64,000 bases of DNA from Clostridiales bacterium (GTDB lineage: Bacteria; Bacillota; Clostridia; Christensenellales; Pumilibacteraceae): positions 1 to 64,000 of the forward strand of contig JAIDCZ010000009.1 of the NCBI GenBank assembly GCA_029055565.1. Reading direction: 5' to 3'. Below are positions 26,114 to 30,702 of this stretch, in pieces. The notes below the pieces were generated by a model. The model saw nothing but the letters and a program-made list of their open reading frames with translations, did not search any database and was not told where the DNA came from. The translations under genes and the position numbers were made by a program. Every line of letters begins with the position of its first letter. Within the stretch, counting starts at the first letter, position 1.

Positions 26114-28903
26114 TTACACCACTATAGCCGTGCCGTATGCGGGTACGGTGTTACTGCCGAACACTACGTTGCCGCTTACCGTCTTGCTGCTGTTAGAGAA
26201 GTTGTGGTACACGGTATACGTTTTGCCGCCGCCCGTTACGGTAATTTTGAGCATGCCGTTATCCTCCGAGCAAGTAGCTGTACCGTTGATAAGCGCGGGA
26301 TTGTCGTTGCGGAACTTGGTAAGGCTTTTAACGTAGTTGAGCAACGAATTGTCGTCGGCTTGCTGGTCGGCAACGCTTTTGGTGTTTCTGTTGGCGCCGT
26401 TGTCGTAGATAGCGGTGCACTTGTTGGCCCAGCCGCTCGTCCACTTCATTGACTGGCGAAGGTCGTCGTCACTGCCCTTTTGGCCGACGAGGCCTATTTC
26501 GTCGCCGTAGTAAATCCACGTAAGCCCCGGCATCGTCATGGTGACGGCAAAATAGAGCTTTGCCTTTTCGGTACTGCCGTTTATTTGCGCGTTGAGCCTA
26601 TTCACGTCGTGGTTGGAGCTTATCATACAGTTGATAGGTCTGTCCGCCCTGTGGTTCAAGTACTTTTGCGCATTGGCGTTGAAATCCGCCGCCGTTGCTG
26701 CCGCGCCGCCGTCCATACGATTGGGCAGATTGTAGTAGGTGTTAAAATCGAACAGCGAATCCATGCCTTGGTAGAACGGCGAAACGTCGTCGGTATTGCC
26801 GTTAAGCTGTTCGCCCAAAAGATAGCAGTTGGGGTATTTGGTTTTAAGCTTGTAGTTGAATTCCTTAAAGAACTCGACGTTTTTTGTTTCGTTGTAGTTG
26901 TACGGCTTGTCGTTGGCGCCGCCCTCGCGGTCGCCACTCGCGTTTTCGCTTTCGTCCCACATAAACACGTGCTTGATTGCGTCCATGCGGAATCCGTCCA
27001 GACCGTAGCTCATCCAGTACGCCGCAACGTCCACCATGGCGTCGCGCACCGGCTGATAGTCATAGTTAAGCTCGGGCATAGTGTTGTTGAACGACGAATA
27101 GAAGTACCAACCGTCGCCCGCGCTTTCCATACGATTGCCGCCGCTGTTTTTCCAACGGTAAAAGTCGCGGTACTTGACGGTAGCTTTGGTGCCGTCTTGG
27201 TAGGTCACTTCCTCGATAACGCCGTCCTTGGATTTTTGGAACCACTCGTTTTGTTGCGAAGTGTGGTTTACCACCAGGTCCATAATGATTTTCATGCCGC
27301 GCTTGTGCGCCTCGGACACGAGCTTGCGGTAGTCGGCGTTGGTGCCGAACTTGGGATCTATGCTGTAATAGTCGTAGCAATCGTAACCGTGATACGAATT
27401 ACTGCTCTGTATGGGCGTCAGCCACAAAACGTCAACGTTAAGGCTTTGCAAATAGTCGAGCTTGCTCGTAATGCCGTTAAGGTCGCCGCAGCCGTCGCCG
27501 TTGCTGTCGCAGAAGGACGCGACGAAAATCTGATAGCCTACGCCCATCTCGTCCCAGCCGCCCACCGTTTTCATAACCGGTAAGCCTTGCGCGTACGCGC
27601 GGTTCAAGTTGCCTACGCTCGCGCGCTTGGGCTCGGTCTGCCTCGTCGACTCGCCCGACCCCTCCAAAAGTCTGTTACTGCCGCCCGCCGTATTGCCTTG
27701 CGAAACGAACCAGTGATAACTGCCGCCCACCTTTTGCGTAGATGAAAGGTTGAGCTTAACGTCGCCGCCGTCCTCACCGTTCCAGCTTCCGCCGCCCTCG
27801 GGGATTTTGCCAATCTTGAAATTGACAGTTGACGGATTACCTATTTGTTTGAGGTCAACCGCTATTACAGCGCCCGACTTATCCACGGTAACGCTTGCAC
27901 AACGCCTACCCTCGCCGCTAGTCCATACCCAAGCCGCCCAGCCGTCGTAATCGCCCGCACTGCGCAAGTAGTGAATGTACAGCGTATCGTTATCCTTCAT
28001 AGTCGGGGCGTAGTCCACTGCGGTGCCGCCGCCCACTTGCCACTTGGCAAACAGAGTGACGTTTTCGGTAACCTTGTCGGTGGCAAAGTTCCACTTTTTT
28101 GCGCTGTCCTCCTCCGCGTACCAGCCGCTTACCTCGTAGCCGTTGCGCTTTAGCTGTGGCGCGGCTATGGTACTGCCCGCCTTGACGGTGATAGGCGCGG
28201 GGTTGTAGGTGCCCGCCTTGCGCGCGTCCAGTCCAACGTTAAACGTTACGGTAACGTCGTCGCCGTCGCCTATAATGGGCGGGTCTACTACCGGCGGCTG
28301 TTCGTTTTTAATCCACTTGGCAGTGAGCGTGAGCGTATCGCCGCTTACCGTATCCATATCGAAATTCCACTTGGTACTGCCGTTATACCAGCCGTCGAGG
28401 GTGTAGCCGGCGTTTGTTACGCTCGGCTGACTTACCTTGTTGCCTACGAGTATCACTTGCGCCGGCACTACCGCGGCACAGCCGGTTACGAACGTTACCG
28501 TAGTCGACTGCGGTATGGGTTCGGGCGGGCCTCCTTGCACCGGCGTCCACATGGCGTACAGTACCAGCGTACTGCCGCTGACCTTAGTGTCGAAGTCCCA
28601 TTCCGTACCGAAATCGGAATCGACGTACCAGCCGCCGAACACGTAGTCGGCGCGCGTGGGGTCGGTAGGGCGAGTTACGCGTTCGCCTTCCTTTATGCTT
28701 TGCGCCGGCACGGCACTGCCCTCGCCCACAAAAAATACTACCGAGCAGTACTTATCGGGTTGGGGCTTGTCGTTGTCCTTATCGCCGTTGCCGGTCGACG
28801 GCGTTTGAACGGTACCGCACGCAGTAAAGCACGCGACGAACGTAGCTATAACGACAATAAGCAACGTTGCAAAAACGATCGATTTACCTTTTCGAGTTCT
28901 CAT
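26114..28903 (-). CDS. Lipoprotein alpha-amylase-like GH13 glycosidase, paralogue
   Basis: 929 residues from ATG 28903 (gaggg upstream). Lipobox FTAC (Cys29), then three Listeria-Bacteroides repeats (each ending in a YAMW, TAKW or FAKW motif, about residues 50-320) against one in its neighbour, a PUD-like starch-binding domain (DTLYIHYLR, GWAAWVWTSGEGRR) and GH13: DLVVNH, GFRMDAIKH (nucleophile Asp641), LGEQLNG (acid/base Glu698) and SSNHD (Asp766). A C-terminal beta domain follows. It should act on extracellular starch or glycogen. The domain order and many segments match the gene downstream, so the pair arose by duplication and then differed in repeat number. Confidence 0.92.
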   Translation of the reverse strand: MRTRKGKSIVFATLLIVVIATFVACFTACGTVQTPSTGNGDKDNDKPQPDKYCSVVFFVGEGSAVPAQSIKEGERVTRPTDPTRADYVFGGWYVDSDFGTEWDFDTKVSGSTLVLYAMWTPVQGGPPEPIPQSTTVTFVTGCAAVVPAQVILVGNKVSQPSVTNAGYTLDGWYNGSTKWNFDMDTVSGDTLTLTAKWIKNEQPPVVDPPIIGDGDDVTVTFNVGLDARKAGTYNPAPITVKAGSTIAAPQLKRNGYEVSGWYAEEDSAKKWNFATDKVTENVTLFAKWQVGGGTAVDYAPTMKDNDTLYIHYLRSAGDYDGWAAWVWTSGEGRRCASVTVDKSGAVIAVDLKQIGNPSTVNFKIGKIPEGGGSWNGEDGGDVKLNLSSTQKVGGSYHWFVSQGNTAGGSNRLLEGSGESTRQTEPKRASVGNLNRAYAQGLPVMKTVGGWDEMGVGYQIFVASFCDSNGDGCGDLNGITSKLDYLQSLNVDVLWLTPIQSSNSYHGYDCYDYYSIDPKFGTNADYRKLVSEAHKRGMKIIMDLVVNHTSQQNEWFQKSKDGVIEEVTYQDGTKATVKYRDFYRWKNSGGNRMESAGDGWYFYSSFNNTMPELNYDYQPVRDAMVDVAAYWMSYGLDGFRMDAIKHVFMWDESENASGDREGGANDKPYNYNETKNVEFFKEFNYKLKTKYPNCYLLGEQLNGNTDDVSPFYQGMDSLFDFNTYYNLPNRMDGGAAATAADFNANAQKYLNHRADRPINCMISSNHDVNRLNAQINGSTEKAKLYFAVTMTMPGLTWIYYGDEIGLVGQKGSDDDLRQSMKWTSGWANKCTAIYDNGANRNTKSVADQQADDNSLLNYVKSLTKFRNDNPALINGTATCSEDNGMLKITVTGGGKTYTVYHNFSNSSKTVSGNVVFGSNTVPAYGTAIVV

Positions 28904-28945
28904 AATAATCCCTCTCGGAAATTCATTTAGGTGAATTGTATTAAC

Positions 28946-28974
28946 AATATACCACCAATAATCGGTTTTGTCAA
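28946..28974 (-). promoter_or_regulatory. Promoter of amylase gene 2
   Basis: Minus strand TTGACA (28974-28969), 17-bp spacer ending ttattggtgg, TATATT (28951-28946). It lies immediately past the yhhQ stop, so this gene is not dependent on the queuosine operon. Confidence 0.85.
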
Positions 28975-28989
28975 CATTCAAAGCGCGCA

Positions 28990-29697
28990 CTACTGCCCGA
29001 GCAACGCGGTTTTTCGCATTTTGTGCCGACGCGCAAGGTACAGTATGGGCGTATCGAGCAACGACGTGAACACGAATATAATATACCCCGAACCGAATAT
29101 GGACATTACCGTAACGAAGTCGTACGTGCCCGCGAACGCCAGTACCGCAAACAAAAACGAATTGATAAGCTGGCTTATAAGCGTGGACCCGTTGTTACGC
29201 AACCACAAAAACTTCTTTTTGTCGCCGGACTTCTTTTCGGTAAACCGCCACCACGCGTGGTACAGCCACACGTCGAATATTTGACTGACTACGTACACTA
29301 TAAGCGACGCACACACGATGCGCGGCGTGGACGTGAATATCGTGCGGAAGGCCGGTACTACCGTATCGTTCGGGCTCGGCACGAAGCACAGCCAGCTCGC
29401 CGACAGCCCCAAAAAGAACAGTGTGGTAAACAGACCTATGTACACCGCCTTGTTGGCCGCCTTTTTGCCCTCGCACTCTGAAAGTATGTCGGTAACGAGA
29501 AAGGTGGAAGCAAACAGCACGTTACCCAGCGTTTGCTCCATACCAAACGCGTCTACCAAAATAAGCACCTCGATATTAGCAAACACGGTAGCTACCGCCG
29601 ACGTGGCGTACAGTCCCGCCTTGCCGAACAGCATATACGCAAGCAACACCACGCCGTAAATAAACACGACGGAAATAATCAATAACAGCTCGTTCAT
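28990..29697 (-). CDS. yhhQ: YhhQ/VUT-family queuosine precursor transporter
   Basis: 235 residues, six to seven hydrophobic helices. The family imports queuosine precursors (preQ0, preQ1 or queuine). Diagnostic blocks: TDILSECEGKKAANKAVYIG, SQIFDVWLYHAWWRFT and RNNGSTLISQLINSFLF. Its ATG overlaps the TGA of the upstream radical SAM gene (ATGA), so the two are translationally coupled and share the leader RNA at 30390-30545. The gluQRS gene in this window acts on queuosine-modified tRNA-Asp, in keeping with use of the salvaged base. Confidence 0.9.
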   Translation of the reverse strand: MNELLLIISVVFIYGVVLLAYMLFGKAGLYATSAVATVFANIEVLILVDAFGMEQTLGNVLFASTFLVTDILSECEGKKAANKAVYIGLFTTLFFLGLSASWLCFVPSPNDTVVPAFRTIFTSTPRIVCASLIVYVVSQIFDVWLYHAWWRFTEKKSGDKKKFLWLRNNGSTLISQLINSFLFAVLAFAGTYDFVTVMSIFGSGYIIFVFTSLLDTPILYLARRHKMRKTALLGQ

Positions 29698-30389
29698 TCG
29701 CCCACCCCGAAATCGGTATTGTTAAGAAGTATATCCACCCGCTCGTCGTCCTTATATATAGGATATATGCGGGTGCGAAAAACGTCCGTCACGGCGCGGT
29801 CGGGCTTGACTGCGGTCGAGTTGTCGCACATAATATTTATGCAAATGCGCTCGAAGTTGCTTAGCCCGAGCTTAATATCGGCTAGCATGCTTTGCTCGGT
29901 CTGCCCGCTCAATCCGAACAGAAAATTGGCCTCATCCACTCCGTCCGCTATTACCGCGGGGTCGCGGTCGGCAATGCCCTTGTGCAAAACGCGCTCGCGA
30001 AGGTCGTAGTCGAACGTTTCGAGCCCGAGCTTTAGCTTGAGCGTAAAGCCGTCGAACTCCCGCCGCAAATCGGCCAGCTTATCCTTGTACATGTAATGAA
30101 CTTCAAAGTGAATTACCGTTATGCCCTTATCGCGGCAAACCGACTTGATAAGACCGCGCGTGCGCTCGTCCAGCTCGAACACCGACCCGCTGTTAATAAC
30201 CTCTAGCTCGCCGTACTTGCCGGTAACGCGGGCCAGCACGTCCGCGTTCAGCGCAAAGTTGTCGGCGTCGGACGGACTGCAGTCCAAGTGATAGTCGCAA
30301 AAGGTGCAACGCCTATACGCGCACCCCCGCCCGCGCAACAGCACTATCTCGCGCTTGCGCTTTTCCGTAATAACCGAATATCTGTCCAT
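29694..30389 (-). CDS. Radical SAM protein, candidate queuine lyase (QueL-like)
   Basis: 231 residues from ATG 30389; the frame is open to 30509, but that part overlaps the leader and terminator and is not convincing as coding. The cluster motif is GCAYRRCTFC, spaced CX4CX2C rather than the usual CX3CX2C. The core (GELEVINSGSVFELDERTR, KLKLGLETFDYDLRERVL) resembles the Elp3/RaSEA-like branch of radical SAM enzymes. Overlap with a queuosine-precursor transporter suggests a role in queuosine salvage; a radical SAM queuine lyase (QueL) has been described in Clostridioides difficile, and this is the best guess. No Shine-Dalgarno site precedes the ATG, which follows the terminator T-run directly. 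Confidence 0.65.
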   Translation of the reverse strand: MDRYSVITEKRKREIVLLRGRGCAYRRCTFCDYHLDCSPSDADNFALNADVLARVTGKYGELEVINSGSVFELDERTRGLIKSVCRDKGITVIHFEVHYMYKDKLADLRREFDGFTLKLKLGLETFDYDLRERVLHKGIADRDPAVIADGVDEANFLFGLSGQTEQSMLADIKLGLSNFERICINIMCDNSTAVKPDRAVTDVFRTRIYPIYKDDERVDILLNNTDFGVGE

Positions 30390-30545
30390 AAAAATAAAAA
30401 ACGCGTTTGCAAAAAGTAACCATGCAAACGCCCGAGTATAAACTCGCTGCCTCCAATAGTTTTGTTTTAGGGAGTCGACGACAATCGACGAATTGTCGGA
30501 GAATCCCAAGGCAGGATGGTTACGAACTGCCTAATATTAAATTAG
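30390..30545 (-). ncRNA. Putative preQ1-type riboswitch with intrinsic terminator
   Basis: Minus-strand leader of the queuosine-salvage operon. P1: aggcag (near 30532-30527) with ctgcct (30514-30509) closing a loop that contains ttcgtaaccat. Next is an inserted hairpin (ggga...tccc with cgacaat/attgtcg inside, 30508-30471), then A-rich taaaacaaaacta and ttggaggcag (30454-30447). The second ggcag can pair with the same ctgcc, an alternative to P1. The leader ends in a terminator, gcgtttgc/gcaaacgc plus T-run, abutting the ATG. Gene context and the pseudoknot-capable loop with A-rich tail suggest preQ1 sensing; class assignment is uncertain. Confidence 0.6.
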
Positions 30546-30549
30546 GTAC

Positions 30550-30578
30550 ATTATATATAACACTCGCACGCTTGTCAA
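30550..30578 (-). promoter_or_regulatory. Promoter of the queuosine-salvage operon
   Basis: Minus strand TTGACA (30578-30573), 17-bp spacer, TATAAT (30555-30550). Transcription should start near 30543, about 155 nt before the first start codon. Confidence 0.9.
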
Positions 30579-30641
30579 TCGTTTGCGGCGCGTTTATACA
30601 TGCCCATTACAAAATTTAATCGTATTTTAATCTATTTTATA

Positions 30642-30670
30642 TTGACTTTTTCCGGTCTGCGTAATAAAAT
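30642..30670 (+). promoter_or_regulatory. Promoter of the zinc-ribbon protein gene
   Basis: TTGACT (30642-30647), 17-bp spacer, TAAAAT (30665-30670), 33 bp upstream of the ATG. Confidence 0.8.
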
Positions 30671-30702
30671 ATATATACTAACGACACAAAAGGAGGACAA
30701 AC

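What the first reader, a model, noticed from the sequence alone, without database searches (positions are those of the whole stretch)
30390..30578. Long switch-like leader on a queuosine-salvage operon, a possible divergent preQ1 riboswitch
Seen: a consensus promoter, a ~155-nt leader with a P1 stem (ggcag/ctgcc) closing a ttcgtaaccat loop, an inserted hairpin, an A-rich segment, a second ggcag that competes with the first for ctgcc, and an intrinsic terminator whose T-run touches the start codon. Known: preQ1 riboswitches are small pseudoknots with an A-rich tail and often control queuosine-precursor transporters. Inference: this leader senses preQ1 or another queuosine precursor, with an extra hairpin not found in the minimal class I fold.
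Basis: partly seen in the sequence, partly recalled or inferred. Interest (0 to 1): 0.85.

Follow-up and report, generated by a model that had tools for sequence, protein, structure and literature searches.

The report
Hairpin-split preQ1 riboswitch on queuine-salvage operon
The leader of this bacterium's queuine-salvage operon carries the conserved core of a known small-molecule sensor RNA (a preQ1 riboswitch) split by an extra hairpin, and it is predicted to shut the operon off when the tRNA-base precursor preQ1 is plentiful; the same split form sits in front of nearly all related queuine-salvage genes examined, yet the standard RNA-family library passes it over.

Summary
The minus-strand leader (about 30543-30390) has the preQ1-I type I core: GGCAG-UUCGUAACCAUC-CUGCC and an A-rich tail ACAAAACUA, with a 44-nt hairpin segment between them. 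P1 and the inserted hairpin covary in relatives. The genes are queL (queuine lyase; PDB 6P78 homologue, E 6.8e-45) and a QPTR/YhhQ transporter. All 100 order-wide leaders with a readable core precede queuosine genes (14 of them fetched through queL itself). The insert is in 24 of 24 queL leaders, 6 of 36 queT, 1 of 38 yhhQ-first and 0 of 2 queF. In species genomes, 77 of 79 queL genes with upstream sequence have it. Likely mechanism: an OFF switch in which preQ1 holds the loop and tail, so they cannot pair with the terminator's apical part (8 perfect pairs in the window). A Shine-Dalgarno-like site lies in the aptamer tail, about 60 nt from the AUG, and usually none nearer, so translation may be controlled too. 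Ligand binding and termination are untested. New variant of a known kind.

The parts
30550..30578 (-). promoter, TTGACA (30578-30573), 17-nt spacer, TATAAT (30555-30550)
   Evidence: 12 of 12 consensus matches; by eye, similar sequence at the same place in genus relatives (upstream strings)
30510..30531 (-). aptamer P1 hairpin: GGCAG, 12-nt loop UUCGUAACCAUC (U6 to C17 in published type I numbering), CUGCC
   Evidence: sequence; P1 covaries across the order, 31 two-sided cells, 0 of 500 shuffles, and pairs in cores located without any demand on P1; R2 match 27.6 bits, E 1.9e-6 in 64 kb
30466..30509 (-). inserted segment with hairpin between P1 and the A-rich tail (44 nt, its last AAA belongs to the A-rich strand)
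   Evidence: homologous inserts covary, 16 two-sided cells, 0 of 500 shuffles
30457..30465 (-). A-rich tail ACAAAACUA (A30, C31, U32, A33 in type I numbering are its last four bases)
   Evidence: sequence; second half of the R2 match, 15.4 bits, E 0.008
30450..30454 (-). Shine-Dalgarno-like GGAGG just after the tail, 60 nt before the AUG
   Evidence: tail anti-SD duplex median -8.2 against -3.2 kcal/mol near the AUG in 76 leaders
30433..30446 (-). spacer hairpin CGAG..CUCG between tail and terminator
   Evidence: folds; hairpins of varying sequence are predicted there in many relatives
30391..30431 (-). intrinsic terminator: GCGUUUGCA / UGCAAACGC stem, 11-nt loop, U-rich run up to the start codon; AUGGUUAC (30423-30416) is complementary to aptamer loop 30523-30516
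   Evidence: 8 perfect pairs, 0 of 100 shuffles of the downstream region
29697..30389 (-). queL, queuine lyase (radical SAM, CX4CX2C)
   Evidence: PDB 6P78 'Queuine lyase', E 6.8e-45, full length
28990..29697 (-). QPTR/YhhQ-family queuosine precursor transporter (Vut_1)
   Evidence: TIGR00697 170.5 bits, cut-off 50.95; PF02592

Best explanation
The queL-yhhQ leader carries a preQ1-I type I aptamer core split by an inserted hairpin, and it is predicted to act as a preQ1-responsive OFF switch. Shown by sequence and comparison: the core, the covarying P1, the covarying insert, the terminator-like hairpin abutting the AUG, the 8-base complement between aptamer loop and terminator apex, and the queL-yhhQ genes. 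Inferred: when preQ1 is scarce the aptamer stays open, and its loop (in the window and its nearest relatives) or its tail CUAAGGA (in a number of others) would pair with the terminator's apical part as it emerges and delay terminator closure, so that the salvage genes are transcribed. When preQ1 is plentiful, probably two molecules stack in the pocket as in the solved type I aptamer, the loop and tail are held in the pseudoknot, the terminator closes and transcription stops at the start codon. The inserted hairpin would lie under P1, outside the pocket, as a passive extension or folding aid. Because a Shine-Dalgarno-like GGAGG follows the ligand-contact strand and none lies near the AUG, ligand binding may also hide the ribosome site. 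The logic is end-product feedback: QueL makes preQ1 from queuine.
For: The positions named for the solved type I aptamer (G5, U6, U7, C8, G9, A11, A12, U16, C17, C18, A28, A29, A30, C31, U32, A33; paper PMC8752633, sections read and passages) are the same in the window; the exception is the proposed pair 10-34. P1 covariation, kept when cores are located by loop and tail alone: all five pairs form in 96 of 106 such cores in RNA-model loci and 77 of 81 in queL loci; by their positions the 14 others are chance matches elsewhere in the loci, except L057 with one mismatch. Insert covariation. R2, trained on 28 insert-free leaders of other queuosine genes, gives the two halves of the leader as its two best hits in 64 kb, and hits 27 of 27 queL leaders given to it and none of 3 queL loci without one. 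100 of 100 order-wide leaders with a readable core precede queL, yhhQ, queT or queF (14 were fetched through queL, 86 through RNA models). Antiterminator complement: 8 pairs in the window, 0 of 100 shuffles; at least 6 pairs in 31 of 77 leaders, mean 5.39 against 4.58. Insert-free leaders have their own version, CCAUCCU/AGGAUGG (6 or more pairs with the aptamer loop in 29 of 69). TGT and QueA in 18 of 18 genomes, full QueC and QueF over cut-off only in 2 of 18 and not in the window's, so its genome, 76% complete, looks salvage-dependent. A preQ1-I riboswitch upstream of queK-qrtT-queL is reported for Clostridioides difficile (PMC11477304, passages).
Against: No ligand or termination data. Rfam finds nothing useful in the window at gathering threshold or, in 30250-30700, at E up to 10, and its preQ1-I model gives no match in the window's genome at E up to 1 under strict filters. 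Position 34 of the window is U, so the U10-A34 pair (C10-G34 in the solved RNA) open to 8 of 15 near leaders is lost. 46 of 77 leaders have no perfect antiterminator complement of 6 or more pairs. In the window the complement lies mostly in the terminator loop, so it would act by kinetics or as a kissing pair, not by replacing the stem: 8-base duplex -8.5 against terminator -12.0 kcal/mol. The minimum-energy fold of the window leader pairs CUGCC with the second GGCAG instead of closing P1. The count of pairs with two-sided change, unlike the other covariation measures, is not far above shuffles (P1 4 pairs, 85 of 500; insert 5 pairs, 32 of 500).
Confidence: 0.82

Rival explanations
1. The RNA senses queuine or another larger queuosine precursor, the substrate of QueL, rather than preQ1; the insert would enlarge or gate the pocket.
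For: The insert is in 24 of 24 queL leaders but in 1 of 38 yhhQ-first and 0 of 2 queF-first leaders, so it tracks the one enzyme that uses queuine.
Against: Loop and tail bases at the named contact positions are the same as in insert-free leaders of queF, queT and yhhQ in most cases and as in the solved preQ1 aptamer; 6 of 36 queT leaders also have the insert. Induction by substrate would call for an ON switch, and a terminator with a ligand-competed antiterminator argues for OFF (inference).
Confidence: 0.1
2. Control is mainly translational: the tail GGAGG is the ribosome site, brought to the AUG by the folded hairpins, and the U-tract hairpin is mainly a spacer.
For: Strong SD in the tail and weak near the AUG, against 65% of 322 background ORFs with a good SD. 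Leaders without a tail SD tend to have a near one: at -7 kcal/mol 60 tail only, 6 near only, 0 both, 10 neither, p 3.7e-5; at -6 59, 6, 5, 6, p 0.0013; at -5 56, 3, 16, 1, p 0.046. Four insert-bearing queT leaders have an SD a short way before an ATG (L028, L086, L104, L107; by eye).
Against: A stem rich in G-C pairs followed by a U-run next to the AUG is a textbook terminator (58 of 77 have TTTT within 16 nt of the AUG). Folding brings SD and AUG no closer than in shuffled sequence (14.6 against 12.6 unpaired nt, 71 leaders). The sequences are related, so the Fisher values overstate independence.
Confidence: 0.25
3. The element is not a riboswitch but an attenuator or protein-binding leader.
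For: No direct ligand evidence; 22 of 77 inserts share an unexplained CCRAUAGG cap that could be a protein site.
Against: Identity with the type I aptamer core, covariation and the queuosine regulon. No Rfam match at gathering threshold anywhere in the window, so no attenuator family of that library there.
Confidence: 0.05

Closest known systems
preQ1-I riboswitch, type I (Rfam RF00522; Carnobacterium antarcticus structure, PMC8752633)
   Same: 5-bp P1, 12-nt loop with UU at its start and UC at its end, A-rich strand ending ACUA, SD-like bases after CUA, queuosine genes downstream
   Different: a structured insert (14-181 nt in 15 near leaders) splits P1 from the A-rich strand; a terminator stands between the tail SD and the AUG; scores below the Rfam cut-off
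preQ1-I riboswitch of the Clostridioides difficile queK-qrtT-queL operon (PMC11477304, passages)
   Same: preQ1-I control of queL and a precursor transporter
   Different: different gene order and transporter; whether it has an insert was not checked (sequence not seen)
Bacillus subtilis preQ1-I type II transcriptional switch (PMC11625349, section 4 and passages)
   Same: preQ1 favours the pseudoknot and then the terminator; without ligand the A-rich strand joins an antiterminator
   Different: type II has AC, not UC, before the P1 3' strand; no insert described in what I read
preQ1-III riboswitch
   Same: larger RNA of the same ligand family (recalled)
   Different: no match to its Rfam model in the window at gathering threshold, nor in 30250-30700 at E up to 10; the core here is that of class I

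Membership tests
preQ1-I riboswitch, type I | UU directly after the 5' strand of P1 | tested here: met
   U6, U7 in the window; in 77 of the 79 queL leaders with sequence (whose pattern asked for UU, so the two others simply gave no match). Definition from PMC11625349 section 4
preQ1-I riboswitch, type I | UC directly before the 3' strand of P1 | tested here: met
   U16, C17 in the window and in 77 of 77 found leaders (the pattern required the C and favoured the U)
preQ1-I riboswitch, type I | conserved C in the 3' tail, followed by UA | tested here: met
   ACUA in the window and in 77 of 77 found leaders (sought first by the pattern); L118, a queT leader, has AAAACC instead
preQ1-I riboswitch, type I | P1 helix supported by covariation | tested here: met
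   31 two-sided cells, 0 of 500 shuffles, slid controls far lower (rows had been chosen with five pairs); pairing holds without that choice
preQ1-I riboswitch, type I | P2 pairing of loop and tail (C10-G34 proposed, G9-A33 noncanonical in the solved RNA) | tested here: inconclusive
   G9 and A33 kept; 10-34 could pair as U-A in 8 of the 15 leaders (L004, L006, L007, L010, L012, L013, L014, L016) but is U-U in the window
preQ1-I riboswitch, type I | P1 joined directly to the A-rich strand (compact H-type pseudoknot) | tested here: not met
   44-nt insert in the window, 14-181 nt in 15 near leaders; this is why it is filed as a variant, not as an ordinary member
preQ1-I riboswitch, type I | Rfam RF00522 gathering score (39 bits) | tested here: not met
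   none in the window; best near leader 27.5 bits. Insert-free relatives also stay below it, 22.5-27.2 bits in 4 of 5 tested, none in the fifth
preQ1-I riboswitch, type I | binds preQ1 (two per RNA) | not testable with these tools
   needs calorimetry or probing
QueL queuine lyase | sequence homology to the solved enzyme with its cysteine motif | tested here: met
   6P78, residues 1-231, E 6.8e-45; CX4CX2C aligned
preQ1-II and preQ1-III riboswitches | match to their Rfam models | tested here: not met
   no match

The most novel reading that the evidence does not exclude
The split preQ1-I RNA is a one-strand, three-way switch. The same CUANGGAGG strand is the ligand-contact strand of the aptamer, the antiterminator strand, and the only Shine-Dalgarno of queL, handed to an AUG about 60 nt away across the folded terminator. 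preQ1, RNA polymerase and the ribosome would compete for one 10-nt strand, with an inserted hairpin (in part of the family capped CCRAUAGG) that marks the queL version and may add a second input.
Probability: 0.3. Interest if true: 0.72.

Novelty: new variant of a known kind. Interest (0 to 1): 0.5.

Why it matters
It adds a widespread, queL-linked form of one of the smallest riboswitch classes that the current Rfam model passes over at its threshold. It suggests that this compact pseudoknot tolerates a structured insert of up to about 180 nt at the P1-tail junction, ties queuine lyase to preQ1 feedback across many Clostridia, and makes a testable case of dual transcription and translation control by one strand. 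It also points to a natural site where reporter or second aptamers could be inserted.

Tried and rejected
Rfam at gathering and at E up to 10 found nothing useful in the window (a plant microRNA family at E 5.3 was discarded). The competing second GGCAG was rejected as a conserved feature (2 of 77). A short upstream ORF read from the tail SD was looked for by eye in the printed leaders and no conserved one was seen. That folding brings the tail SD closer to the AUG than chance was tested and not supported. A script with a faulty pattern reported 0 of 80 leaders and was replaced. L118 was labelled 'no insert' because its tail reads AAAACC; one search shows its 20-nt insert, and I count it as insert-bearing (6 of 36 queT). 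Rows dropped: of 101 rows two (L023, L116) were chance matches; 11 loci gave no match there, of which L057 was recovered and ten stay uncounted (L026, L029, L031, L036, L121-L126); nine weak places (E 0.001-0.05) were not fetched; rows with identical sequence were merged; L179 was left out of the SD statistics (platform too short). Literature: no held paper on a hairpin inserted in preQ1-I was found; McCown 2014 is not held, so a prior description there cannot be excluded.

Full report
Observation. The minus strand of the window carries a TTGACA-17-TATAAT promoter at 30578-30550, then about 154 nt of leader and the ATG of a 231-aa gene at 30389. The leader folds far better than its shuffles (z -4.9, 0 of 200).

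The genes. The first gene is queL: its only match among solved structures at E 0.001 is 6P78, 'Queuine lyase', full length, E 6.8e-45, with the CX4CX2C cysteines aligned. The second is a queuosine precursor transporter, TIGR00697 at 170 bits with cut-off 51. TGT and QueA are in 18 of 18 genomes examined; full QueC and QueF over its cut-off are in only 2 of 18 and not in the window's genome (that genome is 76% complete). Weak QueC-model hits elsewhere, about 31 bits or less, are probably other PP-loop enzymes (inference). The operon therefore looks like the preQ1 source of a salvage-dependent cell.

The leader in near relatives. Of 61 genomes searched, 16 have the gene, the window's own included; 15 of the 16 loci, all but L015, carry the same core: GGCAG-UUCGURACCAUC-CUGCC, an insert of 14 to 181 nt with a hairpin of differing sequence, then a tail ending CAAAACUA. 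The insert's stem changes on both sides repeatedly (16 two-sided cells, 0 of 500 shuffles; 85% of its cells paired). A model of 13 of these 15 leaders (R1; the two longest inserts left out) finds matches in 104 of 396 genomes of the order, of two kinds: about 45 nt with no insert, and 54 nt or more, mostly with one. P1 reads GGCAG, GACAG, GTCAG, GACGG, GTGAG, GCGAG or GACTG with the matching 3' strand; 31 two-sided cells, 0 of 500 shuffles. Those rows had been picked with five P1 pairs, so I repeated the search by loop and tail alone: 96 of 106 cores in RNA-model loci and 77 of 81 in queL loci still form all five pairs, and by their positions the rest are chance matches elsewhere in the loci, except L057 with one mismatch. 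In a sample of 398 genomes of the phylum 41 had a match, and all but the window's own were of insert-free length.

The regulon. All 100 leaders with a readable core lie upstream of queL (24), yhhQ/VUT (38), queT (36) or queF (2). Fourteen of the queL leaders were fetched through queL, so for those the link is by construction; the other 86 leaders came through RNA models. QueF was confirmed by TIGR03139 on one representative; the yhhQ of the insert-free group scores below its family's cut-off (33 against 51 bits) and is named by similarity to the window's; QueT is named by resemblance and recall (no NCBIfam hit for the one tested). The insert is in 24 of 24 queL leaders, 6 of 36 queT (five plus L118), 1 of 38 yhhQ-first (L057) and 0 of 2 queF. 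In named species genomes 77 of 79 queL homologues with upstream sequence have the split aptamer, including Ruminococcus bromii, Acetatifactor muris, Pseudoruminococcus massiliensis and a Coriobacteriales MAG; L186 and L188 lack it. That call kept the best 80 of 104 relatives.

What the core is. The review PMC11625349 (section 4 read; passages) defines type I by UU at the top of P1, UC before its 3' strand and a C in the tail. The structure paper PMC8752633 (sections and passages) names G5, U6, U7, C8, G9, A11, A12, U16, C17, C18, A28, A29, A30, C31, U32, A33. The window has each at the matching place, apart from the insert; the proposed pair 10-34 is U-U here. The insert sits between P1 and the A-rich strand, away from the pocket (inference from the published fold). 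A model trained only on insert-free leaders of other genes (R2) gives as its two best hits in 64 kb the two halves of this leader, in order and adjacent (27.6 and 15.4 bits); it hits 27 of 27 queL leaders given to it and 0 of 3 queL loci without one. Rfam's own preQ1-I model points to 5 of the 15 near leaders, not the window's, always below its cut-off; none of 13 insert-bearing loci scanned passes it, nor do three insert-free ones.

How it may switch. The terminator apex of the window and four relatives contains AUGGUUAC, the perfect complement of the aptamer loop GUAACCAU (0 of 100 shuffles for each). Nine other queL leaders have the full complement UCCUUAG of the tail CUAAGGA, and more have part of it. 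At least 6 perfect pairs of either kind occur in 31 of 77 leaders; mean longest match 5.39 against 4.58 in shuffles, the loop taken alone no better than shuffles on average (4.34 against 4.37). Insert-free leaders often use AGGAUGG against CCAUCCU (7 pairs in 19 of 69). Three solutions to the same need speak for a competition between aptamer and terminator: ligand-bound aptamer, terminator forms, gene off. Against: 46 of 77 lack a long perfect complement, and in the window it lies mostly in the loop, so the effect would be kinetic or a kissing pair (-8.5 against -12.0 kcal/mol).

A second layer. The queL AUG directly follows the U-rich run, and only 11 of 76 leaders have a good anti-SD match close to it (14%, against 65% of 322 other ORFs in the same loci). 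The tail after CUA matches well (median -8.2 kcal/mol). At -7 kcal/mol 60 leaders have the tail site only, 6 the near site only, 0 both, 10 neither (Fisher p 3.7e-5; at -6 p 0.0013, at -5 p 0.046; not corrected for kinship). This suggests that the aptamer tail holds the real ribosome site, bridged over the terminator. A direct test of bridging by folding was negative, so this stays a hypothesis. In the Ruminococcus bromii group the predicted fold closes a helix around the terminator in read-through RNA (folds), which fits.

Verdict. A preQ1-I type I aptamer with an inserted hairpin, on queL-yhhQ, most likely an OFF switch by attenuation and perhaps by hiding the ribosome site: new variant of a known kind. 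A preQ1-I switch on queL is already reported for C. difficile (PMC11477304, passages). Ligand binding and switching are untested.

Noticed in passing
L022:-, L025:-, L061:+ and further insert-free leaders; L057: In 35 of 37 yhhQ-first leaders, and in L057, a short-chain dehydrogenase gene of about 215 aa follows the transporter; NCBIfam gives only below-cut-off SDR matches for the one tested. It is a candidate unknown enzyme of queuosine-precursor salvage.
   Followed up: partly
inserts of L138, L142, L144, L148, L151 and others; also second hairpin of L127, L128, L130: 22 of 77 inserts share a CC[AG]AUAGG hairpin cap (0.06 expected from shuffled inserts); three leaders carry it in the next hairpin instead. 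Unexplained.
   Followed up: partly
L016 (G028): queL match covers only residues 1-61 behind a complete split aptamer, in a genome that has QueC and QueF; it may be a decaying queL where de novo synthesis is present.
   Followed up: no
platforms of L138, L143, L160, L165, L176, L177, L189, L205: Predicted helix (GGCAUA/UAUGCC or GGCACA/UGUGCC and variants) encloses the whole terminator and could form only in read-through RNA (folds).
   Followed up: no
window 26114-28990, minus strand: 958-aa ORF downstream of the operon, repeat-rich N-terminus and amylase-like C-terminus by eye only; a similar ORF follows the operon in 9 loci (cluster 4).
   Followed up: no
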